A stretch of 64,000 nt of DNA from Archangium sp. GTDB taxonomy: Bacteria; Myxococcota; Myxococcia; Myxococcales; Myxococcaceae. Both the position numbers and the translations under genes were made by a program. The stretch spans positions 1 through 64,000 of the forward strand of contig JAUYRZ010000079.1 of the NCBI GenBank assembly GCA_030695565.1. The letters run 5' to 3'. The notes beneath the pieces were generated by a model that saw only the letters and a list, made by a program, of their open reading frames with translations, was not told where the DNA came from and searched no databases. This document shows, piece after piece, positions 17,217-60,946 of the stretch (position 1 is its first letter; each line of letters begins with the position of its first letter).

Positions 17217-17223
17217 GTGCTCC

Positions 17224-17250: not shown

Positions 17251-17256
17251 AGGAAC

Positions 17257-42024: not shown

Positions 42025-42205
42025 GAAAGATCCCCCTTCAGGAGCAGCGCGCATGACACCACGGAACGCGCGAACCCCCTCGGAGGATCTAAGTGCCGCT
42101 CCGTCAAAATGACTGCACGACGGATCATCCTGATGAAGCGCCGCCGCCAAGCGGCTGGAAGCACTGCTCATGCGTGGTGGATCGGAACTGGCACACCCAC
42201 TCGGC

Positions 42206-43465: not shown

Positions 43466-43554
43466 CGCACCGACCCTACACGTTCGAGTGAGCCGGTCGG
43501 CCCCGATGCTGCAAGTCCCCACTCGTGACGCGCGCGAGAATCAGGGAGTGGCTC

Positions 43555-44229: not shown

Positions 44230-44346
44230 GCTGAGCGTGCAACGGCCTGCGCGATCTGTGCAGCCAGATGCACGCCTTGCCGGTCAGACCCGCCACCCTG
44301 GAGGAAAGTGTTGTGGCCCGGGGGGCCGGGTAATTGACTGGCGGCA

Positions 44347-45471: not shown

Positions 45472-45474
45472 GCT

Positions 45475-46077
45475 TCACTCGGAGCGCGGCTCGAGAAAGG
45501 CGCCGTCGGGGCCGAGCACCAGGGCGTACTCATCGCGCTCCACCGCTTCGACGTAGTTCGCCAACCACTGCGGCACGGAGCCCGCCAGCAGCTTGAGGCA
45601 CGGCGCGCTCTCGCCGCCTGCGAACACGCGCCCAGTGGTGGCGTTGACGATGACGCAGTCCTTGCCGCGTTTGGCGACCGGGAACCACTGGTCTGACTGC
45701 GCCTCGTCTGCGCTGAGCCCCGACTTCTTGAGCTGGTCGGGCTCAGCGCGAAACCGTTTGAGCAAAGCCACGGTCGCGGCCCGTTCGTTGAGCACCCACG
45801 CGATCGGCAGCAGCTGCAGCGTGCCGATGATGGCTTCATCGCCGCGGCGTTGCCCATCGTGCATCAACCACAGCGCCCTCAATCCCTTCGGCACGGTGAA
45901 GCCGAGCTTGTGCTCGAGCTTGGAGAGCTGAATCGGCTTGGCGCCCGGCGAGAGCGATTGCATCAGCACCGCCGCGTCGTGCTCCTTCAACCAGGCCGCG
46001 AGGCGGCGGAACGAGTCGACCAGCGAGACCTGGTCTCCCACGGGGCGCGGCGCTGGCGGCGTCTTGTCGGTCGGCAT
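45475..46077 (-). CDS. SMI1/KNR4-family protein
   Basis: 200 residues. The core IQLSKLEHKLGFTVPKGL then RALWLMHDGQ and a late FPVAKRGKDCVIVNATTG follow the SMI1/KNR4 (SUKH) plan. In bacteria SUKH proteins often serve as immunity proteins of toxin systems, but here no polymorphic toxin gene is adjacent, and many members have other or unknown roles. No signal peptide. It may be a stray immunity gene or a regulatory adaptor. Confidence 0.78.
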   Translation of the reverse strand: MPTDKTPPAPRPVGDQVSLVDSFRRLAAWLKEHDAAVLMQSLSPGAKPIQLSKLEHKLGFTVPKGLRALWLMHDGQRRGDEAIIGTLQLLPIAWVLNERAATVALLKRFRAEPDQLKKSGLSADEAQSDQWFPVAKRGKDCVIVNATTGRVFAGGESAPCLKLLAGSVPQWLANYVEAVERDEYALVLGPDGAFLEPRSE

Positions 46078-46226
46078 GACTGTCGCCTACTTCATTCCGT
46101 CACCGAATCACCACCCAACGCTTCATGCTGTGGGAGCTCGACGGCGCTGGCCTCACCGCGTGCAGCACGCCTGCCGCTGACTGTTGTCCCGGAAGGAAGC
46201 CCGCCGTTGTGCCAAAAGAAGCTTCG

Positions 46227-46919
46227 ATGTCGCAGCCTTCAGACAAGCGGAAGCACGCTCGAATCGAATCGAGCCTCGTGTGCAACATCGCCACGGCGAC
46301 CGGTGTGTTCGACGCGGTGGTGGCCAATCTCTCGAAGGGCGGGGCGGCGATCATCGCGGGCCTGGGCGTGGCGGAGGTGGGAGAGACCGTCACCTTGATG
46401 CTCGAGCGGGAGGAGGGGCTGGTCACCCTGTCGTTGACCGGCAACGTGGTGCGCAAAGAAGAGCAAGATCAACGAGGCCTCTACGGCGTGGAGTTCGAGC
46501 CGCTCCCGCCTGATGAAGAAGCCCAGCTCGGCATGTTGTTGCAGCTGCTGCTCACCGCGACGGGGCAGGGGCGGCGAGCGCATCCCCGCGTGGCCACCCG
46601 GGTCGAAGTCACCTGCCGCACCGAGAGCATCTTTCGGGGCTGGGTCAGCGATCTGTCGAAGGGTGGGCTGGCCATCAAGAGCGTGCGCGACGTGGTGGTG
46701 GGCAGCTCCATCGACGTGTCGTTCGGCGTGCGCGGCTTGAGAAGCCTGGTGGAGGTCTCTGGCCAGGTGGTGAGCAACCAGCAGGTGGAAGGGGGCTACC
46801 GCCTGGGGGTGAACTTCGTGCCGCTCACCGCGATGGAGCAGGCGCAGGTCGCGCGCACGTTGGACCTGCTGCTCGACATCGCCTTGCCTGATGGCGAGGT
46901 CGTCGAAGACGACGAGTGA
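46227..46919 (+). CDS. Tandem PilZ-domain protein, predicted c-di-GMP receptor
   Basis: 230 residues with two PilZ domains. Domain 1 has RKHAR (R-x3-R) and VVANLSKGG; domain 2 has RAHPR and VSDLSKGGL. Both therefore keep the R-x3-R and (D/N)-x-S-x2-G c-di-GMP-binding residues. I start at the ATG at 46227; a GTG at 46209 is an alternative. There is no effector or membrane domain, so it probably relays c-di-GMP to a partner controlling motility or surface polysaccharide. The membrane protein gene follows by 51 nt. Confidence 0.85.
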   Translation: MSQPSDKRKHARIESSLVCNIATATGVFDAVVANLSKGGAAIIAGLGVAEVGETVTLMLEREEGLVTLSLTGNVVRKEEQDQRGLYGVEFEPLPPDEEAQLGMLLQLLLTATGQGRRAHPRVATRVEVTCRTESIFRGWVSDLSKGGLAIKSVRDVVVGSSIDVSFGVRGLRSLVEVSGQVVSNQQVEGGYRLGVNFVPLTAMEQAQVARTLDLLLDIALPDGEVVEDDE

Positions 46920-46970
46920 TCAGCAACCGGTGCACTGACCTGGCGCTCGATCCAAGGTAAGAGGCCGCCG

Positions 46971-47642
46971 ATGGATGGCAGAGCGATCATCGAAGTGCTC
47001 GGCGTGCTGTTGGTGGCGTTCGTCGTCTGTGTCGTGGTTCCGCTCTTCTTGCTCTTTCTGTACATCAAGTACCGCGGCGGCAACGCCGAGATGCACGCGA
47101 CGATCGCGGCGCTGAAGTCGGGAAAAGTCAGCGAGCTGCTTCCGTGGGAGAACACGTCGCTCGGTGAGTTGACCCGCGAGTGGGTCGGCCACGCGACCTA
47201 CACCACGAGCATGTTCGGCCGCAGCGATCAGGCCGCCGGTCACGTGTCTTCGAGTCGCGCGCCTGCGGGCTGGTTGCTCGCCTTCAGCATCGAGACGAAG
47301 AACGACGGTGCAGACGGCAAGGTGCTCGCGATGACTTCGGCACATCGGCTGGAGGTGACGATCACCGGCGGTCTGTGCCACGCCACGCTCAACGGCGCGG
47401 TGCTGGGCACCTTCCGTATGGGTGAAGCCGCTTTTTCTGCGCCTGACGGCACGGCGCTGGGCACCTTCGGAGATCAGCTGGTCGTCCGCGGACGTACGGT
47501 GGCGACGATCGGTGCGCCGCGCGCGGGCACGCCGGCGCTCACGCCGCTCATCACCAACCTGCGCGCCGAGCGGACTCAAGAAGACGAGGCTTGGATGCTG
47601 GTGTTCGCCGTGTTCAAGCTCGCGCAAGCTTCAGTCGAGTAG
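46971..47642 (+). CDS. Single-pass membrane protein, unknown function
   Basis: 223 residues. A strong hydrophobic helix (about 8-33, VLLVAFVVCVVVPLFLLFLY) is followed by a basic KYRGG and about 185 residues of mixed alpha/beta, presumably cytoplasmic. No motif recognised. It is downstream of the PilZ gene and may belong to the same transcript. Confidence 0.6.
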   Translation: MDGRAIIEVLGVLLVAFVVCVVVPLFLLFLYIKYRGGNAEMHATIAALKSGKVSELLPWENTSLGELTREWVGHATYTTSMFGRSDQAAGHVSSSRAPAGWLLAFSIETKNDGADGKVLAMTSAHRLEVTITGGLCHATLNGAVLGTFRMGEAAFSAPDGTALGTFGDQLVVRGRTVATIGAPRAGTPALTPLITNLRAERTQEDEAWMLVFAVFKLAQASVE

Positions 47643-47711
47643 GCGATACCTCGAGCACACGTTGCGCGCTGCGGGGCCGCGGCTGGCGTTCAGGTTGCAA
47701 CGCGCACCTGC

Positions 47712-49991
47712 ATGCTCGAAGAACTGGGTCGAACGGGTTGGAAGCAGGGACGTTGGGTGGGGCTGCTGGTGACGTTCTCCCTCGTCGCGTGCAAGTCCGA
47801 CGCGCCTGCGCACGACATCGCGCACGAAGCGATTCCTCCAGAGGCGCCAGAAGCGGTGTCCTGGGAACCGGGAATGATGCGGTTGCCTCCGCCTCATCAG
47901 CGCGCACCCCGAACGCCACCGCAGCCGCAGCCCATCGAGCGGCGCGCCTTCCCCCTCGCAACGCCTGCGCTCGGCGGCTACTCGCTGGCTCCGGCTTTTG
48001 CGTTCGATGAAGTGATTCTCCCGAGCGCGGTGGACTGGCCTCGGGTGGCAGGCGCGCGACCCTTCGAGCTCGAGCGTTTCGGGCGCATCTATGAGCTCGG
48101 GACCAACGCGGCGCGAGAGGTGCTCGACTTCACCGATCTGGTGGCGATGCGTGGCGAGGCCGGTGCGCTGGGCATGGCGCTCCACCCCGACTTCGGTGAC
48201 GGCACGGGCCCCAGGGCCTTCGTCTACGTCTGGTACAACGCGGCGGGAACACCGAGCCAGCAGCGGCTCGCCCGTTACACGTGGGATCCGGTGAGCCGCA
48301 CGTTTTCGCCCGCCTCCGAGCTCAGGCTGATCGCACAGGTCGAGACGCGCCCGCTGCACAACGCCGGGCGCATGCAGTTCGGCCCCGACGGCTTTCTCTA
48401 TTTTGGCAACGGAGACGACCTCAACACCGCCAACCACCAACGCATCGATCGCGCGCTCTTCGGCGGCATTTTCCGCATCGACGTCGACTCGCGTGGTGGC
48501 GCCATCAGCCATCCACCTCCGCGCCAGCCCACGGGAGCGACCACGCAGGGCTACTTCATCCCCAACGACAATCCCTTCGTCGGCGTGCCCAACGCGATGG
48601 AGGAGTACTTCGCGCTGGGACTGCGAAACCCCTATTCACTGTCGTTCGATCGGCAAACCGGTGCGCTGTGGGCAGGTGACGTGGGGGATACCTGGCGCGA
48701 AGAGGTCAACCTCGTCACCTCGGGCGGCAACTACGAGTGGCCGTATCGCGAGGGTGAGATCGTGCGCGCGATGACCGCCACCACCCTGGGCACCGCGCAG
48801 CCTCCGAAGTTCACCTACTCGCACGCCGAGATGGGTGACCTCACTTCGATCCTGGGCGGCTTCATCTACCGCGGCACCGCGCTGCCGGAGCTGGTGGGCC
48901 AGTACGTCTACACGGACTGGCCGTCGTGCCGCGTCTGGGCGCTCAGCGTCAACGGGGCTTCCGTCACGCGCACCACGCTGTTCGAGAACCACCTGTGCAA
49001 CCCCACGGGGATCACCGAGGGCCCCGACGGCGAGCTGTATCTGATGTTCGTCGGAGGGCTCGCGAAGCTGGTGCGTGATCCTTCGATGAGCAGCGTGCCC
49101 CGCAAGTTGTCCGAGACGGTGCTCTTCGACGACGTGGCGGCGCTGAGTCCTGCGCCGGGGCTGGTGCCGTATGAGATCAACTCGCCGCTCTGGTCCGACG
49201 GCGCGCGCAAGCAGCGGTGGATCTCGGTGCCGCAGGGCCGCGAGGTGACGGTGGGCGATGCAGGCGTGTTGGCGTTCCCCGTGGGGAGCCTGCTGGTCAA
49301 ACAGCTCGATCTCGGTGCGCGCCGGGTGGAGACGCGCGTGCTGGTGGTGGGCTCGGAGGACACCTACGGCGTGACCTACCGATGGAATCAGCAAGGCACT
49401 GATGCCGACCTGGTGCTCGAGCCTGCAGACGCGACCATCACCGCGGGCACCAGCTGGCACTTTCCCGGAGCAGGTCAGTGTTGGTCGTGTCACCGAGCGG
49501 AGAATCGGGTGCTCGGCTTCACGGGCGCGCAGCTTCGGCGCGATGATCAACTGCAGGCGCTCGCCAGCCGCGGCGTGTTCTCTCCAGCGACGGTGGCGAA
49601 CATGCCGCCCGCGCTGCCGCAGCCCTCAGACACCACGGCGACGCTCGAGCAGCGCGCCACGGCGTACCTCGCGGCCAACTGCTCCGGCTGTCATCACGCG
49701 GGGGCGAGCTATCTGGGCGGCGGCGACACCTGGAACGCGAGCTACGGCGTGCCGCTTGAAGATCGGGGCCTGGTCGGCGCGCCACACCACAACGGCCCGA
49801 TGGCGCGCGCGCTCAACCTGGGCTCCGCGCCGCTGATCGCTCCGGGAAACCCCGCGGGCTCACTGTTGCTGGCGCGCATGAAGAGCATCAACCCTGATCT
49901 GCGCATGCCTCCGCTGGCCCGGAACACGGTGGATGCCGAAGGCGTGGCGCTGATCGAAGCGTGGATTGCGTCGATGCCCGCCAGCCCCTGA
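47712..49991 (+). CDS. PQQ-type sugar dehydrogenase fused to a dihaem cytochrome-like module
   Basis: 759 residues, lipobox VAC (Cys27). Residues about 85-460 form a glucose/sorbosone-dehydrogenase propeller, with GALGMALHPDF, HNAGRMQFGPDGFLYFGNGDD, EEYFALGLRNPYSLSFDR and the repeated PPKFTYSH. Residues about 475-759 resemble the SO2930-type c-type cytochrome module: YEINSPLWSDGARKQRWI, FPVGSLLVKQLDLGARRVET, first haem site C590-W-S-C-H594 and second C657-S-G-C-H661. The fusion would pass electrons from sugar oxidation straight to haem at the outer membrane or in the periplasm. The next genes (export lipoprotein and coiled-coil protein) follow by 24 nt and look co-transcribed. Confidence 0.82.
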   Translation: MLEELGRTGWKQGRWVGLLVTFSLVACKSDAPAHDIAHEAIPPEAPEAVSWEPGMMRLPPPHQRAPRTPPQPQPIERRAFPLATPALGGYSLAPAFAFDEVILPSAVDWPRVAGARPFELERFGRIYELGTNAAREVLDFTDLVAMRGEAGALGMALHPDFGDGTGPRAFVYVWYNAAGTPSQQRLARYTWDPVSRTFSPASELRLIAQVETRPLHNAGRMQFGPDGFLYFGNGDDLNTANHQRIDRALFGGIFRIDVDSRGGAISHPPPRQPTGATTQGYFIPNDNPFVGVPNAMEEYFALGLRNPYSLSFDRQTGALWAGDVGDTWREEVNLVTSGGNYEWPYREGEIVRAMTATTLGTAQPPKFTYSHAEMGDLTSILGGFIYRGTALPELVGQYVYTDWPSCRVWALSVNGASVTRTTLFENHLCNPTGITEGPDGELYLMFVGGLAKLVRDPSMSSVPRKLSETVLFDDVAALSPAPGLVPYEINSPLWSDGARKQRWISVPQGREVTVGDAGVLAFPVGSLLVKQLDLGARRVETRVLVVGSEDTYGVTYRWNQQGTDADLVLEPADATITAGTSWHFPGAGQCWSCHRAENRVLGFTGAQLRRDDQLQALASRGVFSPATVANMPPALPQPSDTTATLEQRATAYLAANCSGCHHAGASYLGGGDTWNASYGVPLEDRGLVGAPHHNGPMARALNLGSAPLIAPGNPAGSLLLARMKSINPDLRMPPLARNTVDAEGVALIEAWIASMPASP

Positions 49992-50015
49992 CGAGAGCGT
50001 GGTAGCGAGCGGCGC

Positions 50016-50603
50016 ATGCGTTGGTCTTGGTGCTGCTTCATCCTCCTTTCTTGCGCCCACGCCCCGCGCGGCAGCTGTGAACTCAATGCCGCGCTGGAGT
50101 CGCTCGCTTCACGCCACCCCGTCACCGCGCCGCTTGTCGAGACGGGCGGTGAGCTCGACGTGTCGGTGGCCTCCGAGCCTTCACTCTCCGGTCACTACCG
50201 GGTCGGCCCGGGTGGAAAGATCGAGTTCCCCTTCTGCGGCCCGCTGACGGTGGCGGATCTCGATGCTGCACAGGCCTCTCGCGCCATCGCCGACTGCCTT
50301 CGTGCTGGGTACGTGCGCGACCCGGAGGTGACCGTGCGGATCGGCCGTCACACCGCTCATCGGATCAACGTGATCGGTCAAGTGCGTGCGCCCCGAAGCG
50401 TCGACTATGTCCGAGGCATGACGCTGTCTCAGGCGATCGTCGCCGCGGGCGGGCTGACCTGCAGCGCAAGCGAGTCTGTGGTGATCAAGCGTGAACCTGC
50501 TGATCGCAGCTCGCTGATTCGACTGCGCGCGCTGGCCTCGGGCGAGACGGTCGATGTCCCGCTCAGGCCCTCCGATGTGATCTTCGTCTCGGAGCTTCCA
50601 TGA
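50016..50603 (+). CDS. Wza-like polysaccharide export lipoprotein
   Basis: 195 residues, lipobox LLSC (Cys13). Residues about 45-115 match the Poly_export domain (GGELDVSVASEPSLSGHYRV, GGKIEFPFCGPLTVADLD, DPEVTVRI); 116-190 match an SLBB domain (INVIGQVRAPRSVDYVRGMT). It is shorter than Wza (about 380) and lacks the extra SLBB repeats and the outer-membrane helix. Its ATGA overlaps the next gene. No glycosyltransferases or polymerase are nearby. Confidence 0.85.
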   Translation: MRWSWCCFILLSCAHAPRGSCELNAALESLASRHPVTAPLVETGGELDVSVASEPSLSGHYRVGPGGKIEFPFCGPLTVADLDAAQASRAIADCLRAGYVRDPEVTVRIGRHTAHRINVIGQVRAPRSVDYVRGMTLSQAIVAAGGLTCSASESVVIKREPADRSSLIRLRALASGETVDVPLRPSDVIFVSELP

Positions 50604-52168
50604 GCGCCCTGAGTCTCGTCGGTGTGCTCGTGCTGCTCGCGACGCCGGGCGATATCGATTCGTTGCTGCGTCAGCCGGCCTTGCCCGACGCAGAGCTGGT
50701 GCTTCGCGCCATCGAAGTTCGCCAACGTCTCCGCGCGATCGACGGGGCTCCCGATGCCGATCTCGAGCAACGTCTGCGCGAGCTGGAGGTCTCACTTGCC
50801 GGTGCACCGGTGGAGTTGATGAACGCGCCTCGGCTGAAACATCTGCTCCGCGCCAGGATGATGCAGGCCGAGGTTCAGGTGCTCACGTTGTCTAAAGACC
50901 TCGGTCCTCGTCACCCTGAGCTGCGCAAAGCCCAGGCCCTCGCCACGGAGTACCGGCGCCTGTTCGAGCTGCTGAAGGTCAGCACCGCGCTCGAGCAACT
51001 GCGTGAGTCGCCGGCGCAGCTGCTGGTGCGGCGTGAAGAACTCGAAGCCCGGGAGCGCGTGCAGGCCCGCCTCTACCTCGACAAACACCCGCGCCTCCTC
51101 GCCACGCGCGCAGCGCTCGTTTCGGTCACTCGGCAACTGGGTGAAGGCGTCTCTCGCACCGACTGCGAGCTCGCCGGGCACGCGTTCGATCGGCGCATCG
51201 AGTCGCTCCGTGCTTCCACCCGTGCGGTGGCCGATTCGCATGAAGCCCTCGAGGAAGACGCCGCGCTCGATGCGCTGCTGATTTCCCGAGCGCGTCTGAG
51301 CGTCGACGAGCCTCGCTGCACGCCGCTGCCTGAGGGCCAGCCCATCATCCTCGCTCCCGTGGTCGAGCTCGCGGGTGACGCGTATCTGCGGGCCCGGCTG
51401 TCGAACGGTGCCGTTCTCCAGCTCAATCGCAGCTGCGGAGAATTCGGTGGAGCAGGCGAGGGCGTGTTGACCCTGCGGTCCGGAAAGGTGGTCCGCTTCG
51501 GGGAGGGGCGCGCCGCCGAGCTGCCGGGCCAGGTGTTGATCGAGTCCAACGTGGAGGCGGTCAACGCGCCACCAGGCTCCGTCGTCTCTTCGCGCGGCAC
51601 GGACGCCGCTCTCGCCTTCCGGGTGCTGGTCATCGAGCTGGCGGCCGGCAAGGTGCACGAGGCGCCATGGGACACGTTTGCTCCGGCGACGGCGGGGAAG
51701 AAGCGTTTCATCGGGCTCATCCGGGCGCGCGGGCCGAGGTCACCGATCACGGACCAGATCTGGGACGTACTGGTGTGGGAACTGGCGACGAACAAGACGC
51801 GCAAGGTGGGCTCGGGCAAGGGGCCCTTCACTTGGCGCGTGGCCGGCGACGAAGTGATCGCCCCGACCGATCAGCCCATCGCCATCAATGGTTCGACCGG
51901 CACAGTTCGTCCTGTCGCGAATGTCGAAGGTTCGCGACCCGGCGATGGGCTCACCTGGGTCGAGGCGCGTTCGAACCTCGGCTCCGAGTCGCCGCGTGAA
52001 TGGCGAAGCTGCGACGGGCGGCCCGTGCGCATTCGCTACGCGACCGAAACGCTCAAGCCTGACGTTGCTCAGGGCTGCCCCACGCTCGGCCCGTACTGGG
52101 AATCGGGTCTGCTCTTCACCGATCGCGGCGTGTTCCGCTGGCCGGCAGACCTTCAGCTTTGTCGCTGA
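50600..52168 (+). CDS. Secreted coiled-coil protein, possibly Wzc-periplasmic-like with a propeller tail
   Basis: 522 residues with a short signal-like N-terminus (LSLVGVLVLLATPG). Residues about 20-220 are predicted helical and contain LSKDLGPRHPELRKAQAL and YLDKHPRLLATRAALVSV, close to the HP-x-L/V coiled-coil segments of GumC/Wzc periplasmic domains. There is no tyrosine kinase or membrane helix at the end. Residues about 250-520 are beta-rich and propeller-like. It overlaps the Wza-like gene by 4 nt, so it is likely a dedicated partner of that protein. Precise family unknown. Confidence 0.62.
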   Translation: MSALSLVGVLVLLATPGDIDSLLRQPALPDAELVLRAIEVRQRLRAIDGAPDADLEQRLRELEVSLAGAPVELMNAPRLKHLLRARMMQAEVQVLTLSKDLGPRHPELRKAQALATEYRRLFELLKVSTALEQLRESPAQLLVRREELEARERVQARLYLDKHPRLLATRAALVSVTRQLGEGVSRTDCELAGHAFDRRIESLRASTRAVADSHEALEEDAALDALLISRARLSVDEPRCTPLPEGQPIILAPVVELAGDAYLRARLSNGAVLQLNRSCGEFGGAGEGVLTLRSGKVVRFGEGRAAELPGQVLIESNVEAVNAPPGSVVSSRGTDAALAFRVLVIELAAGKVHEAPWDTFAPATAGKKRFIGLIRARGPRSPITDQIWDVLVWELATNKTRKVGSGKGPFTWRVAGDEVIAPTDQPIAINGSTGTVRPVANVEGSRPGDGLTWVEARSNLGSESPREWRSCDGRPVRIRYATETLKPDVAQGCPTLGPYWESGLLFTDRGVFRWPADLQLCR

Positions 52169-52188
52169 GGTCATGAAGGAGCACCACC

Positions 52189-52475
52189 ATGCCGAAGGTC
52201 ATCGCGCTCATGTCCATGTCCCTCGACGGCTTCGTCGCTGATCGCAACGGCGGCGTGGCCGAAGTGTAGGTCCGTGGGCGTTCACGGTGCGGACACCATT
52301 CAGCAGTTGCTGAACGCGGGCCTGCTCGACGAGCTCAACATCGACGTCGCCGCGGTGCTCAGGCGTTCGGCTGTTCGACCGCCTCGCCGGCACGCCGTCG
52401 GTGCTCGGCAACCCCACGGTGATCGCGAGCGTCGGTATGACGCACGTGCGCTACCCGGTGAATGTGGGAAGCTGA
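52189..52475 (+). pseudogene. Decayed RibD-C/dihydrofolate-reductase-like gene
   Basis: The start MPKVIALMSMSLDGFVADRN is typical of the RibD_C/YwjB DHFR-like family, with a good ribosome site (AAGGAG). After 26 codons a TAG occurs (52267). In the next frame VHGADTIQQLLNAGLLDEL continues the family's C-terminal half, and another frameshift leads to RLFDRLAGTPSVLGNP and THVRYPVN before a TGA at 52473. About 90-100 central residues are missing. The gene is therefore broken by an internal deletion and at least two frameshifts. Confidence 0.8.
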
Positions 52476-52481
52476 ATCGTC

Positions 52482-53270
52482 ATGGGGCACCGAGCCAACT
52501 TCGTCGTCATCGCGAAGCGAACCGCTCGGGTCTTCGTTGATCAGTGGGCCGCGCTGCAATGTTCGCTCGTGCTCCGAGAGGGGCCAGCGGCTTCGCGGAA
52601 GTGGGTGCAGGCGCTCGACGACGGGCTCCTGCACTCGGCCTTCGTCGAAGCGGGCTTCTTGCTCGACTTCGACAACGCGGTCCTGCTCGGATTCGGCGAC
52701 GTCGGTGCCCGCGACGATCTGGATGAAGAAAGGGCGGAGTTGGCCGCGGCGCTGAATCGCAGCCCCGCCGACTTCCTGAAACGCATCGCCCACGTATGGC
52801 CCGGCTGGAAGCTCGTCTGGGACGAACGCGGGCTCTGGGCGTTCGCGAACCACCTCCGCAAACGCGAGATCGCGGGCGTCGACCTCGAGCACGTGGAGGC
52901 CGCCACACCCAACTACGCCGTCACCACCGTTTCGGTGAACGAGACCGGAGAAGTGACCTCGTCGAAGCGGCTGCGCAGCGCCCACCGGAAGCGCATTGAC
53001 GCCGAAGCGAAGGAACCTCTTGCCGAGCCCGACGCCAATGATGACTGGGCCGGTGTGATGTACGCCCTGCCGGACGTCGGGTTCATGCGCCGTTCCGCGC
53101 TCGAACGTCGCCTCGCCAGGGGGCGCCCTCCGTGGGACGTCTCGCGCACGCGCGCGGTCTGCGAGCAGCTCCTCGCCGAAGAGGAACTCCTCGCCAGCGC
53201 CGACGGTCTGTCGCTTGCGCAAAACAACGGCCTGAACCGTGAGTTGCTCGCCAGGCCGGCACCGTCTTGA
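52482..53270 (+). CDS. Hypothetical protein
   Basis: 262 residues from the ATG at 52482. The N-terminal MGHRANFVVI and an acidic, Trp-containing middle (FLKRIAHVWPGWKLVWDERG) are notable. No signal peptide, membrane helix or recognised motif. The coding signal is good: consistent third-position GC and no internal stops. Its neighbours are decayed genes. Function unknown. Confidence 0.6.
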   Translation: MGHRANFVVIAKRTARVFVDQWAALQCSLVLREGPAASRKWVQALDDGLLHSAFVEAGFLLDFDNAVLLGFGDVGARDDLDEERAELAAALNRSPADFLKRIAHVWPGWKLVWDERGLWAFANHLRKREIAGVDLEHVEAATPNYAVTTVSVNETGEVTSSKRLRSAHRKRIDAEAKEPLAEPDANDDWAGVMYALPDVGFMRRSALERRLARGRPPWDVSRTRAVCEQLLAEEELLASADGLSLAQNNGLNRELLARPAPS

Positions 53271-53338
53271 CCCATCAGGCGGGTGGCAGGTGAGGGTGGT
53301 TCGCTCCGTGCTCTTGAACCGGAGAAAGGAGTCACACC

Positions 53339-53467
53339 ATGAACGACAAACTCGAGTTGATGCTTCGCGACCCGGCGGGCCGCGTCGGTGTGCCGATTCT
53401 CCTGTGGTTGGGCGGCGTACCGCTGGGCCTGGTGCTGCTCGCCTGGTTCTTCTTCTTCCGCGGCTGA
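53339..53467 (+). CDS. 42-residue membrane protein
   Basis: A short gene (MNDKLELMLR start, FFFFRG end) preceded by a strong ribosome site, GGAGAAAGGAG ending 8 nt before the ATG. The sequence has a polar N-terminal helix (1-14), then one membrane helix (about 19-40, rich in Leu, Gly, Trp, Phe) and a final Arg-Gly. I recall similar short proteins in other proteobacteria, usually annotated as hypothetical. It may modulate a larger membrane complex; nothing nearby tells which. Confidence 0.6.
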   Translation: MNDKLELMLRDPAGRVGVPILLWLGGVPLGLVLLAWFFFFRG

Positions 53468-53501
53468 GCATTTCTGCCACGGTTCGCGCCTGGGTGAGGC
53501 G

Positions 53502-53600
53502 TCAGCGCTGTGAGCGGAGGTACTCGGCGAACTTGTCGAGTGTCTGGTAGCCCAGCTCAACCGCGCCGAAACCGATTCCCGCATCGCGCTGCGCCTTGAT
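53502..53600 (-). pseudogene. Remnant of a C-terminus, possibly SRPBCC/AHSA1-like
   Basis: A minus-strand frame ends DKFAEYLRSQR then TGA and begins with no usable start. The preceding segment GFGAVELGYQTLDKFAEY resembles the final helix of AHSA1/SRPBCC proteins. Only about 33 codons survive and the upstream sequence shows no matching frame. The identification is weak. Confidence 0.35.
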
Positions 53601-53662
53601 TCCAACCCTTCTCCTCCGATCTGGGCTTGTTCGCCCGCTGCCAACTCGCTGTGCTCTCACGC

Positions 53663-54037
53663 ATGGCGGATCTTCGGATCACCTGGGTGCGCGGCGCGAA
53701 GCAGGTGGGACCTGAGGAGCTCATCGGCGTGCTCGAAGTCCACGCCGACGGCAGCTGCCGCGCGCTCTTTGCGGAGCGAACCGAGGTCGAGGGCCGCAGC
53801 CACATCCGGTTGGCGCGCACGGTGTGGCCCGGGAAGGACTCGCTCGAGACCCGGTGGTGGAGCCTGGTGCTCGACGCCCGATACAAGGTGGACATCGTTC
53901 GCAATGGCTCGTGCGGCGATCCACTCTTGACCGTGGATGTTCCCCGCATCACGCGCGCGCTGTTGGAGCTCGAGCTGATTGGCGCGAGCACCATGATCGC
54001 GGTGGATGACGGCCCGATCCGGCTGCTTCAGCCGTGA
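53663..54037 (+). CDS. Small hypothetical protein
   Basis: 124 residues from the ATG at 53663. Beta-rich, beginning MADLRITWVRGAKQVGPEEL and containing a repeated strand pattern (LEVHADGSCRALFAERTEV, WWSLVLDARYKVDIV). No signal peptide or known motif. It is convergent with the PLP-enzyme gene with 19 nt between stops. Confidence 0.5.
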   Translation: MADLRITWVRGAKQVGPEELIGVLEVHADGSCRALFAERTEVEGRSHIRLARTVWPGKDSLETRWWSLVLDARYKVDIVRNGSCGDPLLTVDVPRITRALLELELIGASTMIAVDDGPIRLLQP

Positions 54038-54056
54038 CCGCCACGCACGATGCTCA

Positions 54057-55979
54057 CTACGCCTGGCGCTGAGGCCGGTACTTGCGCTCGAAGAAGGGCT
54101 CCATCGCGGCCAGCAGGCCATCGACGTCGGCCAGCTCGGGCACCGAGACCCGGCAGATCTGAACGTTGTCCCGTTTTTGCGCCGCCTTCACCTCGGCCGT
54201 CAACGCGCCCTGCGTCGATTCCTGAGGGTTGATGACGTAGAAGACGTCGGGCTTCCCGTCGCCGGTCGACTGGCCATAGCTGACGCGGTTCTTCACCAGG
54301 GCCGGCGCCTGCTTCAGCAGCGAGTCGACGAACTCATCGACCAGGTCGGGGAAGGTCGTGGGCGCGGCGGGGAGGTAGAAAGACAAGAGCCCGCTCGCCA
54401 TGCCCTCGGTCACCTGCTCCGGGGTGATCGCGTAGAGCGTGATCTCGTGACCCCGCCGGCGGAGCGCCGCGCGAAGGCCCTCGGCCAGCTTCATGGTGTG
54501 CTCGCTGATGGTGGCGAGCCGGGGTCGCAGATCACCGAGGGCCTCCAGCAAGTGCACCAGCTGCGCGGGCTTCGCGAAGGAGTCGGCGTCGCGACCCAGC
54601 ACCCGCGCCCGGGCGACGATCTGCTGGGCCAGGGGCTCGTCTGCACAGGCCACCACCCCGAGCGTCGCTTTGCCCTTGGTGAAGTACTTGGAGCCGCTCT
54701 TCACCAGCAGGAAGGGCCAGTCGTGCGCCCACGCGCGGCTGAAGATCGCAAAGAGGGGCGCCAGCGTGGTGTCGACGATGACGGGAACGCGGCGCTTCGT
54801 CGTCTGCTCGTGGGAGCGCAGCGCCCGCATCAGCGCCTCGAAGTCGTGCGCCTGCAGCTCAGGGTTGGTCGGCGTCTCGAGGAAGACACAGGCAGGCGAC
54901 GTACCGAGGCCTGCGAGGCCGGCGATCACGCGGTCGATTAACGTCACGGGCCTGCCGTCGACGCCTTGCCCCAGCACGGCCAGCGGCGCCGGCTTCACGC
55001 GCGTTCGCTTGAGCAAGTCGGTGATGAGCTGACCCGTGCCGCCGTAGCCGTTCTGCGCATAGAAGATCGTGACCGGCTCAGGACCGAGCACGTCGCCCAG
55101 CGCCTCGAACACCGCCGCTTCCGCCGCGAGGCCGGTGCAGAAGGTGAGGCTGTCGCGCATCTGGGGAAACAGCGCCTGCAGTCGCGCGTGGCAAGCCTCG
55201 TGGGTGGCCTCGGCGAAACGGGTCGGGGTCACGCCAGCGGCCAGCTCGAGCTCCGTGCGCGCATCCGACGCGATGAGCGCCGAGACGGTGCGCTTGCGAA
55301 CGAGCTGAATGCCGGCGGACACGATGCGCGACGGGTCTCGCAGCAGCAGCACCCCACCGTGCATGACGGGAAAGCAGACGGCATCAGCGCCCAGACTCGA
55401 CACGTCGCCGGTGAAGCGCTTCGCGGTGACGAAGACCGTCAGGACGTCAGCCGACGCGGCCGGCAGCGAGCCTTCCCAGCGCTCGTGGAGCTCGACGCCG
55501 TCGCCCCGCAGCGCCTTCTTCTTCTCGTCGGACACGGGGAGCACGTGATCTGCGTAGACCCTGACCTTCAAGGTTCGGAGCGGCGACTCGATGACGGCGA
55601 GCCACGGCTTGGTCACCGAGGCGAAAGAGAAGCAGCGCGCGGCGTTGGTGTGCGACTGCACCCAGAGTTCGAAGAGCGTGGAGAGTGGCTGCCCGAGGCG
55701 CGCGTAGTCGAACGGCAGACCGACGGTGATGAGGGCCTCACGGATCTGAGCGGGCGATGGCGCCGGCTCGACGACGAGTCGCGAGAGCACGGCGGCGAAG
55801 CGCGCAGCGAAGCCCTCATCGGAATCGAAGCGGGTCAGATCGTAGGTGGTGGCGCGAGGGTCCCAGTCGTCGGGCAGCGCGCCCGGCGCGAGCAGGCGCG
55901 GCAAGGCGAGCTCGAGCTGTTTCTTGAACTCGACACCGAGCACGATGCGGCCATCTGAACCGGGGGAAGTCGTCGCCAT
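54057..55979 (-). CDS. PLP-dependent Cys/Met-metabolism-like enzyme with long N-terminal domain
   Basis: 640 residues. The last 400 are a fold-type I PLP enzyme of the cystathionine gamma-synthase type: NGYGGTGQLITDLL (phosphate contacts), FLETPTNPELQAHDF, VIVDTTLAPLF (the Asp that contacts the pyridine N) and VKSGSKYFTKGKAT with the Schiff-base lysine K431. The first 230 residues are an extra domain containing VYADHVLPVSDEKKKALRG and no recognised motif. Normal family members have about 390 residues, so this is a fusion or a distinct subfamily. Probably cytoplasmic; substrate unknown. The ATG at 55979 is the first start in frame. Confidence 0.78.
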   Translation of the reverse strand: MATTSPGSDGRIVLGVEFKKQLELALPRLLAPGALPDDWDPRATTYDLTRFDSDEGFAARFAAVLSRLVVEPAPSPAQIREALITVGLPFDYARLGQPLSTLFELWVQSHTNAARCFSFASVTKPWLAVIESPLRTLKVRVYADHVLPVSDEKKKALRGDGVELHERWEGSLPAASADVLTVFVTAKRFTGDVSSLGADAVCFPVMHGGVLLLRDPSRIVSAGIQLVRKRTVSALIASDARTELELAAGVTPTRFAEATHEACHARLQALFPQMRDSLTFCTGLAAEAAVFEALGDVLGPEPVTIFYAQNGYGGTGQLITDLLKRTRVKPAPLAVLGQGVDGRPVTLIDRVIAGLAGLGTSPACVFLETPTNPELQAHDFEALMRALRSHEQTTKRRVPVIVDTTLAPLFAIFSRAWAHDWPFLLVKSGSKYFTKGKATLGVVACADEPLAQQIVARARVLGRDADSFAKPAQLVHLLEALGDLRPRLATISEHTMKLAEGLRAALRRRGHEITLYAITPEQVTEGMASGLLSFYLPAAPTTFPDLVDEFVDSLLKQAPALVKNRVSYGQSTGDGKPDVFYVINPQESTQGALTAEVKAAQKRDNVQICRVSVPELADVDGLLAAMEPFFERKYRPQRQA

Positions 55980-56015
55980 GCCTCGGATTGTGCCGGTGGA
56001 GGGTGGAGGGCGCCA

Positions 56016-56675
56016 CTACTCCTCGGGCGTCTCCCACTCGCCGCCGAGCGGCGCGCCCCCATCGGGCTGGGAAGCGAACGAGAACTGAAGCGTCTTGCCG
56101 CGCGTCAGCTCACCGGCGTTCTTGCCCGTGCAGCGGATGAAGGCCTCCTGCCGGCAGGGGTCGACCATCAGGAGCGTGCAGTGGAGCTTCACCCGCTCGG
56201 CCTTCTGCCGCGCGGCGGCCTCCCGGATGCACTCGTTGTGCAGTCGCGCCGACTCCTTCTTGAACTCGCGCAGCTCTCGCACCTTCTGCGCCTCCGTCAG
56301 GCCGGGACCCAAGGCCATGTTGAGATCGTGCGAGCACTCACACTCGGGACAGTCGTCGCCTGATTCCTCCTCGAGAACGAGCATGGGGAGCGGCTGCTCC
56401 TCGAGCTCCTCTTTGCTCGGGGCATGCAGCTGAAAGGTCACGCCTGCCTGCTCCGAGTAACTGCCAGTGCACATCGCGCTCGCCCAGGAGCGCGGGCACA
56501 CCCAGACCGGCGCCTCGCAACCGAGCGCCGCAGGAGCCGTCACCTTCAGACACTCGTCCCCTTTCAGGGCGAGCTTCATCGGGTGCCGCTCAGCGAAGCG
56601 CTTTCGCTGCGCGAGGGTCGGCGAGAGCGGCACGCCCGCGATCAGCACCAGCCCGGTCAGCAGCCAACGTGTCAT
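56016..56675 (-). CDS. Secreted Cys-containing protein, unknown function
   Basis: 219 residues from the ATG at 56675, which opens the signal peptide (MTRWLLTGLVLIAGVPLSP). A longer frame would run into a palindromic repeat and is rejected. The mature part has about ten cysteines, including CPECECSH, and a helical middle (LTEAQKVRELREFKKESA) that looks like a coiled coil. No family recognised. It lies 36 nt upstream of the PLP-enzyme gene on the same strand and may be co-transcribed. Confidence 0.62.
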   Translation of the reverse strand: MTRWLLTGLVLIAGVPLSPTLAQRKRFAERHPMKLALKGDECLKVTAPAALGCEAPVWVCPRSWASAMCTGSYSEQAGVTFQLHAPSKEELEEQPLPMLVLEEESGDDCPECECSHDLNMALGPGLTEAQKVRELREFKKESARLHNECIREAAARQKAERVKLHCTLLMVDPCRQEAFIRCTGKNAGELTRGKTLQFSFASQPDGGAPLGGEWETPEE

Positions 56676-56722
56676 TCCCGTTGGTCGTCCGACGCCCGAA
56701 TTTGGGGTAGCGCCTCGCTTGG

Positions 56723-56765
56723 CTCCCTCGCCCTGCGGAGCGGGGAGAGGGTCGGGGAGAGGGGC
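56723..56765. repeat. GC-rich palindromic repeat (family copy 7)
   Basis: ctccctcgccctgcggagcg followed by gggagagggtcggggagagg. The arms CTCCCTCGCCC / GGGAGAGGG are imperfect and the orientation matches copy 1. It lies between the secreted-protein start and the HlyD-like stop. Confidence 0.6.
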
Positions 56766-56803
56766 CATCTGTGCACCCGAAGGCCCCCTGTCTGTGCGCC
56801 GTA

Positions 56804-57709
56804 CTAGCGCCAGACCAGCGCGCGCTCAGTGGCCTCGATGTCGGCGTCGCCCTGGACACCGGCGGCGAGCCCACCCCGGGCGTTGTTGAGCTGGGCCTCA
56901 GCGACGTCGCCCCTGGCGTCGGCCCCGAAGACAGTCCGCTGGGTTCCGCCGGTGGGGAGCGTGAGCACCACGCCCATGCCTTTGAGCACCGCTTCTCCGG
57001 AGGGGACCCTCACGAGCGCCTTCAGCCTTCCGGTGTCCTCCACGGTGGCGATCTTCGCGTCCCTGGCGACGGGCTTGCCCTTCTCGAGAGCGGTGAGGGT
57101 GATCACGCCTGATGCGGGCGCGATGATGTCGGCCGACGCGATGAAGGACCTGGCGGAGGCGATGGCCTCTTTGGTTTCGGCGATCTTCTTCTCCAGCTCG
57201 CGTTGGGTGAGGCCGGTGCCGAGGGGCGGGGTGGCCCTCACCACCGCGGAGGCAGCCGTCTTCTGCTGCTTCTCGGCAGCGGTCAGCGCGGGCGTCTTCG
57301 TCCCGTTGGCGGCCTTGCGGGCCCTCTCGAGGGCGGCGTCGGCGGACTTGAGGGCCCTCAGCCATTGGACGAGCGCGGCCCTCGCCTTCCAGTCGGGCTT
57401 GCCTGGCTGCCGCTTCTCGAGCGTGGCGAGTTGTTGTTCGAGCACGGGGAGTTTTTCTTCGAGCGCCGCGACGTCGTACCTGGCGATGATCGCACCTCTG
57501 GTGACGAGCGCACCGCTCTGCGCGCTGACCTCTCCGATGACGCCGTCGTGCTGGGCGAGGAGGGTGAAGGTGCCCGCGGGCGTGAGCACGTAGGAACTCT
57601 TCACGGTATGAGGCAGGGGCACCGCGAGGAGCGCGCTCATGACGAGGATGAGGGCGAAGAGCGTGATGACGAGAGGACGCTTCGAGCGCTGAGTCTCACC
57701 GGTGGGCAT
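56804..57709 (-). CDS. HlyD-family periplasmic adaptor-like protein
   Basis: 301 residues. An N-terminal membrane helix (about 12-33) is followed by the first lipoyl half (FTLLAQHDGVIGEVSAQSGALVTRGAIIARYD). A coiled-coil hairpin (about 80-185), the second lipoyl half (ASADIIAPASGVITLTALEKGKPV) and a beta barrel follow. This is the plan of membrane-fusion proteins. No transporter or outer-membrane partner gene is adjacent, so it is an orphan or works with a distant pump. Confidence 0.83.
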   Translation of the reverse strand: MPTGETQRSKRPLVITLFALILVMSALLAVPLPHTVKSSYVLTPAGTFTLLAQHDGVIGEVSAQSGALVTRGAIIARYDVAALEEKLPVLEQQLATLEKRQPGKPDWKARAALVQWLRALKSADAALERARKAANGTKTPALTAAEKQQKTAASAVVRATPPLGTGLTQRELEKKIAETKEAIASARSFIASADIIAPASGVITLTALEKGKPVARDAKIATVEDTGRLKALVRVPSGEAVLKGMGVVLTLPTGGTQRTVFGADARGDVAEAQLNNARGGLAAGVQGDADIEATERALVWR

Positions 57710-57773
57710 CCGCCTTCAGTAAAAGGAGCGTCGAGTGATGAACCACCCGGTAGTGGTTGGATCAGTTGAAATC

Positions 57774-57793
57774 AGTGGGCCCACCAGGTTCGA
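57774..57793. repeat. tRNA 3'-end copy, possible attachment-site remnant (distal)
   Basis: AGTGGGCCCACCAGG (57774-57788) is identical to 60206-60220, the 3' end of the tRNA(CAU) gene and its flank. The match then continues as TTCGA with one base missing, giving 20 of 21 positions. It lies 2.43 kb from the tRNA and is oriented as expected for the far end of a tRNA-targeted insertion. Confidence 0.65.
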
Positions 57794-57816
57794 TTTCTAG
57801 CCGCGAGGGAACTCGT

Positions 57817-58149
57817 ATGAGCCAGCGTGACCAAGTCCTTCGTCGTATCGAGAAGCTGAAGGCATCGATGCCGAGGGAACCACCGATGCGTGACAGCGTC
57901 GTCTCACAGTCGGGGAAGGAGCGAGCCGAGATCGCTTACCTCTACTTGAGCATCGGCGACGAGGAGTCGGCCGCCGGCATGTACGTCGAGGGCCCTCGTT
58001 GGTCCCATGCTTGCGGTGACGTCATGGGGGCGGTCGTGCTCGTGAAACAGTCGCTCAGGCTGCGACCGCGAAACGAACAGGCGCTGGAGCTGTATCGAAC
58101 ACTGTGGGCTCTCGCCGGCCTCGGCGACACCCCGGATCCGGTCCAATGA
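57817..58149 (+). CDS. Small TPR-like protein
   Basis: 110 residues from the ATG at 57817 (GAGGGA 7 nt upstream). Two or three short helices form a repeat-like array (ERAEIAYLYLSIGDEESAAG, VLVKQSLRLRPRNEQALELY), the second close to a TPR consensus. The N-terminus (QRDQVLRRIEKLKASM) is a basic helix. Its stop overlaps the HEAT-repeat gene's ATG. It is the first gene inside the candidate tRNA islet. Confidence 0.65.
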   Translation: MSQRDQVLRRIEKLKASMPREPPMRDSVVSQSGKERAEIAYLYLSIGDEESAAGMYVEGPRWSHACGDVMGAVVLVKQSLRLRPRNEQALELYRTLWALAGLGDTPDPVQ

Positions 58150-59003
58150 CGACGCCGCCAGACGAACGAACCATCCCTGAACTCGTCGCAGTTGCATTGG
58201 CCGGCGACGAAGACGACCAAGACGCTTGGGACGCCATCCGGTCGCTTCACCTGCGAGGGGACGCGCCCACCTTCGACGCCGCGGCGGAGTTGATGCGCTC
58301 TCCGTCCGAGAAAAGGAGAGGCCGAGCCGTAGACATCTTGGCGCAACTGGGAACCCCAACGCCGAGCCCTGAACTTCGAGCGAAGTGTGCAGAGGCGATC
58401 ATCGGCCTCCTGCTTGGTGAGCAGTCGCCTGCGGTTCTGAATTCCATTGGCGTTGCCTTGGGCCACCTCGGAGACCCCCGAGCTGTCAGCGCACTCCTTT
58501 CCCTCAAGGATCACCCTGATTCTGGGGTGCGCTTTGGAGTCGTGCGGGGCTTGTCATCGCACAGCGAGCCCTCAGCGATCGAGGGCCTCATCCAGTTGTC
58601 GAACGACTTTGACGACGACGTTCGGAACTGGGCGACCTTCGGTCTGGGAAGCATGACGGATGTTGATACGCCGGCCGTTCGACAAGCCTTGGTTGCCCGT
58701 CTTGGTGACAGCAATGACGAGATTCGAGGCGAAGCACTCGAAGGGCTCGCTCAGCGCAAGGACCAAAGGGTGTTGGATCCACTCCGGCGCGAACTGACCG
58801 GCCGGCCTGTGGGCGTTCTAGCGGTGGATGCCGCTGGTTCACTTGGAGATCCTTCGCTGCTGCCGCTTCTGCTGGAACTTCGACTCGCTGCCTCGCACGA
58901 AAACGCGGACGAGTACTTCAAGAGCGTCCTCAATGAGGCCATCGGCGCTCTCGAAAACGTGAGGGCAAGTCGGCCTGTCGCTGAAGCAGGCAAGACGACC
59001 TAG
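58146..59003 (+). CDS. HEAT-repeat protein
   Basis: 285 residues. At least six helix pairs of HEAT/PBS-lyase type: SPAVLNSIGVALGHLGD then DPRAVSALLSLKDHPDSG, VRFGVVRGLSSHSEPSAIEG, VRNWATFGLGSMTDVDTP and RGEALEGLAQRKDQRVLDPL. Such scaffolds bind other proteins. Codons look less GC-rich than elsewhere: two 60-base lines counted by hand give 62% and 60% GC against 73% for one line of the TetR gene at 60.4 kb. Overlaps the preceding gene by 4 nt, so the two are a unit, perhaps a scaffold pair. No enzymatic motif. Confidence 0.8.
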   Translation: MTTPPDERTIPELVAVALAGDEDDQDAWDAIRSLHLRGDAPTFDAAAELMRSPSEKRRGRAVDILAQLGTPTPSPELRAKCAEAIIGLLLGEQSPAVLNSIGVALGHLGDPRAVSALLSLKDHPDSGVRFGVVRGLSSHSEPSAIEGLIQLSNDFDDDVRNWATFGLGSMTDVDTPAVRQALVARLGDSNDEIRGEALEGLAQRKDQRVLDPLRRELTGRPVGVLAVDAAGSLGDPSLLPLLLELRLAASHENADEYFKSVLNEAIGALENVRASRPVAEAGKTT

Positions 59004-59114
59004 CGGCCCTAACCGCACAGGCTTCAGCTTGGGACTCGGAGAGCGCCAGCGCGGTCGCGCGAGAACTCCTGGGCCGACTGATCCCGCCAATCACTCATCG
59101 TTGGCTTTGCCCTA

Positions 59115-59882
59115 CTACGTGCTGGGACTCGTCCTCGACGACGCCGTGGCGCTGCCTCTTCGGCTTGACCTCCTCGAGGACGCTGGCTCGGAGAGGATCT
59201 CGAGCATCCGCTTTGCCAGGACCATGGCCGAGCCGGGGTTCTGCCCGGTGACCAGATTTCGGTCTTCGACCATGTACGGCTTCCACATCTCGACGGAGCT
59301 GAAGTCGACGCCGATCTTCTCCTTGAGCTCGGTCTCGAGCAGCCACGGCGCGCTGGAGGCGAGACCGACGGCCTCCTCCTCCTTGTTGGTGAAGGCCGTG
59401 ACCCGGTACCCCTTGAAGGGGGACACGCCGTGGATCCGGGTGGCCAGCAGAGCGGCCGGGGCGTGACACACGATGAAGAGAGGGTTTCCCGAGGTGAGCT
59501 GTGCGGTGAGCAGTCGTCCCACGTCGGCGTCGAACGCAAGGTCCGACATCGGCCCGTGACCGCCCGGCATGTACACGGCGTCGTAGTCCTCGAGCCGGAC
59601 GTTCGAGAGCGCGAGTGGGCGCCGCATCACCTCTGCGGACCGGATGATGGCCTCGAGCTCGAGTGCAGCCTTCTCCCCGCCCACCATCGAAGGACGCAAG
59701 CTCATCATGTCGACGTTCGGGGTCACGGCGTTGGGCGTCGCAACCACGACCTCGTGCCCCGCATCCGTGAGGATCTTGTATGGGTTCGCAAACTCCTCGG
59801 CCCAGTAGCCGGTCGCGTACCTCGTACCGTCCTTCAGCACCCAGTACGTGGCTCCGCTCACGATGAAAAGTACCTTTGCCAT
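59115..59882 (-). CDS. DJ-1/PfpI-family protein (Hsp31-like)
   Basis: 255 residues; GAGGAGG stands 6 nt before the ATG at 59882. Key features are the glutamate-containing strand region VYMPGGHGPMSDL and the nucleophile elbow FIVCHAPAALLA with C139. Members act as glyoxalases, deglycases or chaperones. The C-terminus after LEILSEPAS is an unusual Ser/Arg-rich run of about 20 residues (RRSSRRGSATASS) not typical of the family, possibly a frameshifted tail or a read-through. It lies inside the candidate islet on the opposite strand to the HEAT gene. Confidence 0.82.
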   Translation of the reverse strand: MAKVLFIVSGATYWVLKDGTRYATGYWAEEFANPYKILTDAGHEVVVATPNAVTPNVDMMSLRPSMVGGEKAALELEAIIRSAEVMRRPLALSNVRLEDYDAVYMPGGHGPMSDLAFDADVGRLLTAQLTSGNPLFIVCHAPAALLATRIHGVSPFKGYRVTAFTNKEEEAVGLASSAPWLLETELKEKIGVDFSSVEMWKPYMVEDRNLVTGQNPGSAMVLAKRMLEILSEPASSRRSSRRGSATASSRTSPST

Positions 59883-60207
59883 GGCGACCTCCTCTGCCCT
59901 CGGAGGTTGTGTAACCACGTCTCCGATCGTTGCCATCCGTGGGTCGGCCCGTGCCCGGATGTCGCGCAGCAGGTTGCGCCGATGCTCGAAATGCAGAGCG
60001 GGCAAGACGAACAGGCGGGACGTTTTGAGTCGACAAGAGCACGCTGGCGACGCCGACGACCGTGGCCGCGACGATCGAGCTGACCGTCTCGTCAGAGGCG
60101 GAAGGCGCGCGCCATGGTCTGCCGGTGGTCCCACCGACGTCGCAACCCTCATCACGCGCAAAGTCCTACCGCGAGAATCATGAGCGCTGGCGCGCGGCTG
60201 AACTGAG
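59883..60207. other. Non-coding stretch without recognised features
   Basis: 325 bases between the DJ-1-like start and the tRNA. I find no gene, terminator or RNA structure that I can support. Frames here are short and lack a codon bias. As part of the candidate islet it may be the remains of a lost integrase or other gene. Confidence 0.5.
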
Positions 60208-60220
60208 TGGGCCCACCAGG
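60206..60220. repeat. tRNA 3'-end segment matching the distal copy (possible attachment site)
   Basis: AGTGGGCCCACCAGG, comprising two flanking bases, the discriminator base, the 3' acceptor strand and T-stem bases of the tRNA(CAU) gene, is repeated exactly at 57774-57788. Confidence 0.65.
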
Positions 60221-60279
60221 ATTCGAACCTGGAACCAAGCGGTTATGAGCCGCCAGCTCTACCGTTGAGCTATGAGCCC
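60208..60279 (-). tRNA. tRNA with CAU anticodon (Met elongator, or Ile2 after modification)
   Basis: 72 nt, reading GGGCTCA at the 5' end and TGGGCCC-A at the 3' end (7-bp acceptor stem with one G-U), D arm GCTC-AACGGTA-GAGC, anticodon stem GGCGG/CCGCT with loop CTCATAA, variable region TGGTT and T arm CCAGG-TTCGAAT-CCTGG. The CCA end is not encoded. The anticodon is CAU; whether it is elongator methionine or the lysidine-modified isoleucine tRNA cannot be told from this reading. It is not the initiator, as acceptor pair 1-72 is formed. Confidence 0.9.
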
Positions 60280-60328: not shown

Positions 60329-60946
60329 GTGCCTACCAGAGCCCGAAAGAAGCGTGAGACGTATCACCACGGAGACCTCTCCAACGCGCTCGTGGCCGCC
60401 GCCCTCGAGGTGATCGCCAAGGAAGAGCAGCTCACGCTGCGCGAGGTGAGCCGCCGGGTGGGCGTCAACCACCGCGCCGTCTACCGCCACTTCGCAGACC
60501 TCACCTCGCTGCTCGCCGCGGTGGCCGAGCAGGGCTACCGCCAGCTGCTCATCGTGCTCCAGGAAGCGCTCGACTCGGCCAAACGCTCCGCCCCCGAGAA
60601 GCGCATGGAGGCGCTCGCCTGCGCCTACGTCGCCTTCGCGATCGATCACTCTGCGCACTACCGGATCATGTTCGGCCGCCGGCTCAACGAAGACGGCCAG
60701 TTCCCCATTCTCGAAGAACTCGTGCTCAAGGCCTTCGAGCTCATCGACGCCGAAGTGCTCGCCGGCATCGAGTCAGGCCGCTTCGTCGCGCGCCCCCGCC
60801 GTGAGCTGGTCTTCGCCTTCTGGAGCCTGGCCCACGGCTTCGCCAGCCTCGCCCTGGTGCGCCGCATCAAGGTGAAACGGGTGCTGGTCGACCCCTACGT
60901 GAAGCAGATCGTCGCGCCTTTCATCGCCGGCCTGCACGCGCTCTGA
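60329..60946 (+). CDS. TetR-family transcriptional regulator
   Basis: 205 residues from GTG. The N-terminal helix-turn-helix is plain: HHGDLSNALVAAALEVIAKE, then LTLREVSRRVGVNHRAVYRHF with the recognition helix at about 43-53. The C-terminal helical ligand-binding domain contains VAFAIDHSAHYRIMFG. It probably represses itself or the hydrolase gene 99 nt downstream on the same strand. Effector unknown. Confidence 0.88.
   Translation: MPTRARKKRETYHHGDLSNALVAAALEVIAKEEQLTLREVSRRVGVNHRAVYRHFADLTSLLAAVAEQGYRQLLIVLQEALDSAKRSAPEKRMEALACAYVAFAIDHSAHYRIMFGRRLNEDGQFPILEELVLKAFELIDAEVLAGIESGRFVARPRRELVFAFWSLAHGFASLALVRRIKVKRVLVDPYVKQIVAPFIAGLHAL

What the first reader, a model, noticed from the sequence alone, without database searches (positions are those of the whole stretch)
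57774..60220. Candidate integrated islet at a tRNA(CAU) gene, with no integrase
The 15-base end of the tRNA gene (60206-60220) recurs exactly at 57774-57788, followed by a near match (TTCGA with one base missing). The copy is oriented as expected for the far end of an insertion that used the tRNA 3' end. The 2.4 kb between holds a TPR-like protein, an overlapping HEAT-repeat protein, a DJ-1-like protein with an odd tail and 325 bases of non-coding DNA. Hand-counted lines in the HEAT and DJ-1 genes give 60-63% GC versus 73% in one line of the flanking TetR gene. An integrase is absent, so it would be a remnant or a passively mobilised islet carrying two scaffold proteins of unknown use.
Basis: partly seen in the sequence, partly recalled or inferred. 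Interest (0 to 1): 0.66.

Follow-up and report, generated by a model that had tools for sequence, protein, structure and literature searches.

The report
Decayed integration scar at a tRNA
A 2.4-kb stretch beside a tRNA gene of a myxobacterium is the worn-down remains of a mobile element that inserted there, and the same spot in its relatives is hit again and again by elements that often carry toxin genes aimed at neighbouring cells.

Summary
The 15-base tRNA 3' end recurs exactly at 57774-57788, and nowhere else in 8.5 Mb. The reading as an integrated islet is largely right, but 'no integrase' is not. The supposed non-coding 324 bp next to the tRNA encode the last ~50 codons of a tyrosine integrase that runs antisense into the tRNA gene. 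That tail is the best match among 127,804 six-frame 33-mers of the window, at the exact expected place. Across the family the same tRNA is an integration hotspot: 14 of 96 genomes (7 genera) carry a displaced tRNA 3' half 2.3-28.8 kb downstream on the same contig, and G040 has an empty site. Several elements hold an intact integrase, and five hold a SitA5-type toxin gene. In three, joining the ends in silico gives one frame: integrase, att core, excisionase-like HTH. Integration would cut that frame in two; Mx9 Int has the same layout. The window islet has lost most of the integrase, the HTH half and the arm DNA, so it is a fixed remnant holding a small helical protein, a YibA-like HEAT protein and a DJ-1 protein. 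The region new to this clade extends beyond the repeat (about 42.4-60.2 kb).

The parts
60207..60279 (-). tRNA(CAU) gene, called tRNA-Met; target of integration, intact
   Evidence: ARAGORN, Rfam RF00005 68.7 bits
60206..60220 (-). 15-base 3' end of the tRNA; tRNA-side att core
57774..57793 (-). displaced copy of the tRNA 3' end, one base missing; far att site, worn
   Evidence: exact 15-mer unique in genome; best second copy in window
57816..57823 (+). TATGAGCC, matches the other end of the canonical att core; holds the ATG of the small ORF; suggestive only
   Evidence: only copy in the window outside the tRNA; cores of relatives end at ATGAGCC; free alignment not significant
60062..60268 (+). 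remnant of a tyrosine integrase C-terminus, in frame into the antisense strand of the tRNA; 33 conserved residues at 60110-60208
   Evidence: tblastn to G009 Int; anchored score 34.6, rank 1 of 127,804 six-frame 33-mers; 0 of 20000 shuffles
59118..59882 (-). DJ-1/PfpI family protein, 255 aa; cargo
   Evidence: PF01965 56 bits; best relative 77% identical in another family of the order
58146..59003 (+). HEAT-repeat protein, YibA-like; cargo, start overlaps the stop of the ORF before it
   Evidence: PF13646 108.6 bits; PRK09687 187 bits, below the 275 cut-off; PDB 1oyz YibA
   Evidence: no Pfam or NCBIfam match; AlphaFold2 five helices, pLDDT 71; sporadic in relatives
42376..57773 (.). wider clade-variable zone between the ancestral neighbour gene and the repeat; 42.5-47.6 kb shared with G003, about 47.7-57.7 kb not found there
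36733..42375 (-). ancestral downstream neighbour gene, 1.5-2.9 kb from the tRNA in G022, G107, G111 and G005
60329..60946 (+). TetR-family gene, conserved upstream flank of the tRNA in the genus

Best explanation
The 2.4 kb between 57774 and 60206 is a decayed integrated element at a recurrent integration site. An element with an Mx9-like tyrosine integrase recombined its att core, a copy of the tRNA 3' half, with the tRNA(CAU) gene. That restored the tRNA, displaced the old tRNA 3' end to the far side, and gave the integrase a new C-terminus read from the antisense strand of the tRNA. Deletions then removed all but the last ~50 codons of the integrase, the far-side HTH/excisionase half and the arm DNA, and most of the far att core. 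What remains are three cargo genes. Shown: the two att copies, the integrase tail in frame, the same architecture with intact integrase in relatives, and an empty site in a relative. Inferred: that the cargo came with this element, that the loss was by deletion, and that the islet cannot move. My guess for cargo use (about 0.3) is that the HEAT protein, with its overlapping partner, is an orphan immunity-type gene, as YibA is for RhsA.
For: The repeat is unique in the genome. The integrase tail sits in the same frame and at the same distance from the tRNA as in relatives: score 34.6, next best in window 21.8, 17 loci without integrase -9 to -41. G009 carries a 514-aa integrase (PF00589) reading into the tRNA, nearest phage protein Mx9 Int at 37%. 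Fourteen genomes of 7 genera have the displaced 3' half downstream on the same contig. In genus g8 the same flank gene lies 45 bp from the tRNA in G040 (no fragment) and 19-29 bp after the far copy in G012, G042 and G044. None of the window's HEAT, small-ORF or DJ-1 genes was found at this site in the relatives read.
Against: The far copy is 15-20 bp, against 45-47 bp in most relatives, and its middle is not recognisable. The arm DNA conserved at far ends elsewhere is absent. No relative shows HlyD joined to the tRNA, so the exact empty site of this insertion is not seen. Searched without the anchor, the tail is weak (E 0.001-0.13; integrase HMM not significant). The DJ-1 gene has host-like codon usage.
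Confidence: 0.85

Rival explanations
1. The insertion is larger, about 18 kb (42.4-60.2 kb), and the 57774 copy is only an inner boundary: several elements piled up at the tRNA one after another, the newest nearest the tRNA. This is compatible with the best explanation for the innermost 2.4 kb.
For: The ancestral neighbour gene is 1.5-2.9 kb from the tRNA in G005, G022, G107 and G111 but 18 kb away in the window; G003 is also expanded and has two displaced tRNA copies on one contig.
Against: No second displaced copy was found near 42-48 kb; 42.5-47.6 kb is shared with G003 and could be native.
Confidence: 0.5
2. The repeat is chance and the three genes arrived by ordinary recombination.
For: Only 15-20 bp; the free alignment of the rest of the core is not significant.
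Against: Unique in 8.5 Mb, correct orientation, integrase tail at the other end, hotspot in relatives.
Confidence: 0.07
3. A passively mobilised islet that still moves with the help of a related integrase in trans.
For: Both att copies are partly present; related elements exist at the same site in relatives.
Against: The far core is degenerate and the conserved far-arm DNA is missing.
Confidence: 0.08

Closest known systems
tRNA-borne genomic islands as defined by Islander (PMC4383910)
   Same: intact tRNA plus displaced 3' fragment in the right orientation, over 2 kb
   Different: no integrase gene, only a tail; would be rejected by Islander's integrase filter
Myxophages Mx8 and Mx9, attP inside int (PMC6070905)
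   Same: integrase gene crosses the att core and gets a new 3' end on integration; Mx9 Int also ends in HTH_17 with a 19-bp tRNA-like segment before it
   Different: different target tRNA; the window keeps only the tail; no phage structural gene recognised among the element genes scanned
SitA toxin cassettes on mobile elements (PMC5562445)
   Same: relatives' elements at this tRNA carry SitA5-type toxin genes, with Imm11 beside one
   Different: no toxin gene in the window islet
YibA, the HEAT protein downstream of RhsA (PMC3150448)
   Same: HEAT-repeat protein, best NCBIfam match PRK09687; PDB 1oyz
   Different: below the family cut-off; no Rhs toxin beside it

Membership tests
tRNA-borne genomic island (Islander) | intact tRNA gene with a displaced 3' fragment in the expected orientation | tested here: met
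tRNA-borne genomic island (Islander) | integrase gene inside | tested here: not met
   only the C-terminal tail at 60062-60268
tRNA-borne genomic island (Islander) | absence of the insert at the same tRNA in relatives | tested here: met
   G040 empty; G005, G022, G107 lack these genes there
Mx8/Mx9-type attP-in-int element | integrase frame continues through the att core | tested here: met
   window tail in frame into the tRNA; relatives
Mx8/Mx9-type attP-in-int element | HTH_17 half of the gene beyond the att core | tested here: not met
   present in G006 and G012 and read in frame in G043, G062, G063; in the window the small helical ORF lies there
SitA toxin cassette | SitA escort domain with toxin domain | tested here: not met
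   no match in the window islet
YibA/PRK09687 immunity protein | NCBIfam equivalog cut-off 275 bits | tested here: not met
   187 bits
YibA/PRK09687 immunity protein | neutralises a toxin | not testable with these tools
   needs an assay

The most novel reading that the evidence does not exclude
The window islet is a fossil of a widespread myxobacterial element family that inserts at tRNA(CAU). Its single gene encodes integrase plus an excisionase-like HTH with the att core between them, so integration cuts the gene in two, locks the element in, and spreads SitA-type toxins and immunity genes among kin.
Probability: 0.45. Interest if true: 0.6.

Novelty: new member of a known kind. Interest (0 to 1): 0.42.

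Why it matters
The scar itself is ordinary. What it points to is a reusable integration hotspot in this myxobacterial family, where elements bring toxin and orphan genes that may set kin recognition. It also points to a simple, testable switch: an integrase-HTH gene severed by its own integration. It further shows that 'no integrase' islets can hold a short integrase tail that gene callers skip.

Tried and rejected
Extension of the far copy through the anticodon arm by free alignment: not significant. A second displaced copy nearer the ancestral gene: none. The DJ-1 gene as foreign by codon usage: it is ordinary. Plasmid relatives of the HEAT gene next to toxins: no clear toxin neighbours, though one small Klebsiella plasmid pairs it with yhhH. 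The integrase HMM without the tRNA anchor is too weak on the short tail. Two original Mx8 and Mx9 integrase papers are not held.

Full report
Observation. The tRNA(CAU) gene lies at 60207-60279 minus. Its last 15 bases recur exactly at 57774-57788 in direct orientation, as stated. The exact 15-mer occurs only at these two places in the 8.5-Mb genome, while one-mismatch matches are at chance level. By local alignment the copy reaches 57793 with one base missing and is by far the best second match in the window, 33 against 23. The DNA between has 63.7% GC against 67.0%; the HEAT gene is strongly atypical in codon usage and the small ORF mildly so, but DJ-1 is not.

Integrase tail. In G009, a family member, a 514-aa protein with a Phage_integrase domain reads toward the tRNA and through its 3' half on the antisense strand. 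Its nearest phage protein is Mx9 Int, 37%. Fragments of such genes abut the tRNA in G003, G006, G012, G015 and others. The window has the same tail: RHGLPVVPPTSQPSSRAKSYRENHERWRAAELS immediately before the tRNA, without a gap against the relatives' tails. Against a profile of eight relatives it scores 34.6, first of 127,804 six-frame 33-mers in the window (next 21.8). Seventeen loci without integrase score -9 to -41, and none of 20,000 shuffles reached the observed score in an earlier version of the test. Without the positional anchor the similarity is weak, so the claim rests on position, frame and profile together.

Hotspot. A search of 96 family genomes found 14 genomes of 7 genera with a tRNA 3' half (nt 27/29-73) on the same strand and contig, 2.3 to 28.8 kb downstream of the tRNA. 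In genus g8 the site is empty in G040, with flank gene c8 45 bp from the tRNA. In G012, G042 and G044 the far copy lies 19-29 bp from that same gene, and G041 keeps an integrase tail with no far copy. Integrase is near full length in G009, G043, G062 and G063, long in G042, and a remnant in several others. SitA5-type toxin genes lie inside the delimited intervals of G012, G019, G044, G062 and G064. G012 and G019 pass the NCBIfam cut-off, as does G020, whose gene lies just beyond its copy. In G019 the toxin ends in an AHH nuclease domain and is followed by an Imm11 gene. SitA genes on mobile elements are known (PMC5562445).

Mechanism in the intact relatives. At the far copy of G006 and G012 lies an ORF with an HTH_17 domain; in G012 it starts in the att core. 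Joining the two ends in silico gives one open frame in G043, G062 and G063: 452-488 codons of integrase, the core, a linker and the HTH. G012, G020, G046 and G066 keep this frame from shortened integrases; G006, G019, G042, G044, G064, G074 and G083 do not reach an HTH in frame. Mx9 Int has HTH_17 at 489-537 and a 19-bp tRNA-like segment between the catalytic part and the HTH. In Mx8, and by a similar principle in Mx9, attP lies within int and integration gives int a new 3' end (PMC6070905). I infer, without a test, that integration severs the HTH and so controls excision.

The window element. It keeps the tRNA, the integrase tail, three genes and a worn far copy. It lacks the HTH half and the arm DNA conserved at other far ends. 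The small ORF begins where the HTH ORF begins elsewhere, at an ATGAGCC that may be the end of the att core; this is suggestive only. The HEAT protein is YibA-like (PDB 1oyz); YibA neutralised RhsA (PMC3150448) and Imm-HEAT is a listed immunity type (PMC3482391). That is a lead for function, not a test. The 110-aa protein has no family match, and its low-confidence model is five helices, so 'TPR' is not established.

Wider zone. The ancestral neighbour gene (36733-42375) is 1.5-2.9 kb from the tRNA in G022, G107, G111 and G005 but 18 kb away here. The block 42.5-47.6 kb is shared in order with G003; about 47.7-57.7 kb was not found there. The islet is thus the tRNA-proximal part of a longer variable zone, and no second displaced copy marks its outer edge.

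Verdict. A real but ordinary integration scar in an interesting hotspot.

Noticed in passing
L208 (G043), L212 (G062), L213 (G063), both ends: Joined in silico, the element ends give one frame of integrase, att core and HTH_17, which integration would cut in two; Mx9 Int has the same layout.
   Followed up: partly
L080, L079, L210, L212, L207: SitA5-type toxin genes inside elements at the same tRNA in G012, G019, G044, G062 and G064.
   Followed up: partly
window 45478-46077 (-): SUKH-1 (SMI1/KNR4) protein, a common immunity type, in the variable zone beside the tRNA.
   Followed up: no
window 17215-18891 (+): 558-aa gene with the most atypical codon usage of the window (GC3 0.59) and no Pfam match.
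   Followed up: no
L121 3469-3513 and 5442-5480 (G003 C63): Two displaced tRNA 3' copies 2 kb apart in the closest relative, consistent with tandem insertions.
   Followed up: partly
window 63703-63963 (-): 86-aa open frame, 95-100% identical in many relatives near the tRNA, looks like the end of a sigma-70 family gene; a fixed anchor for this locus.
   Followed up: no
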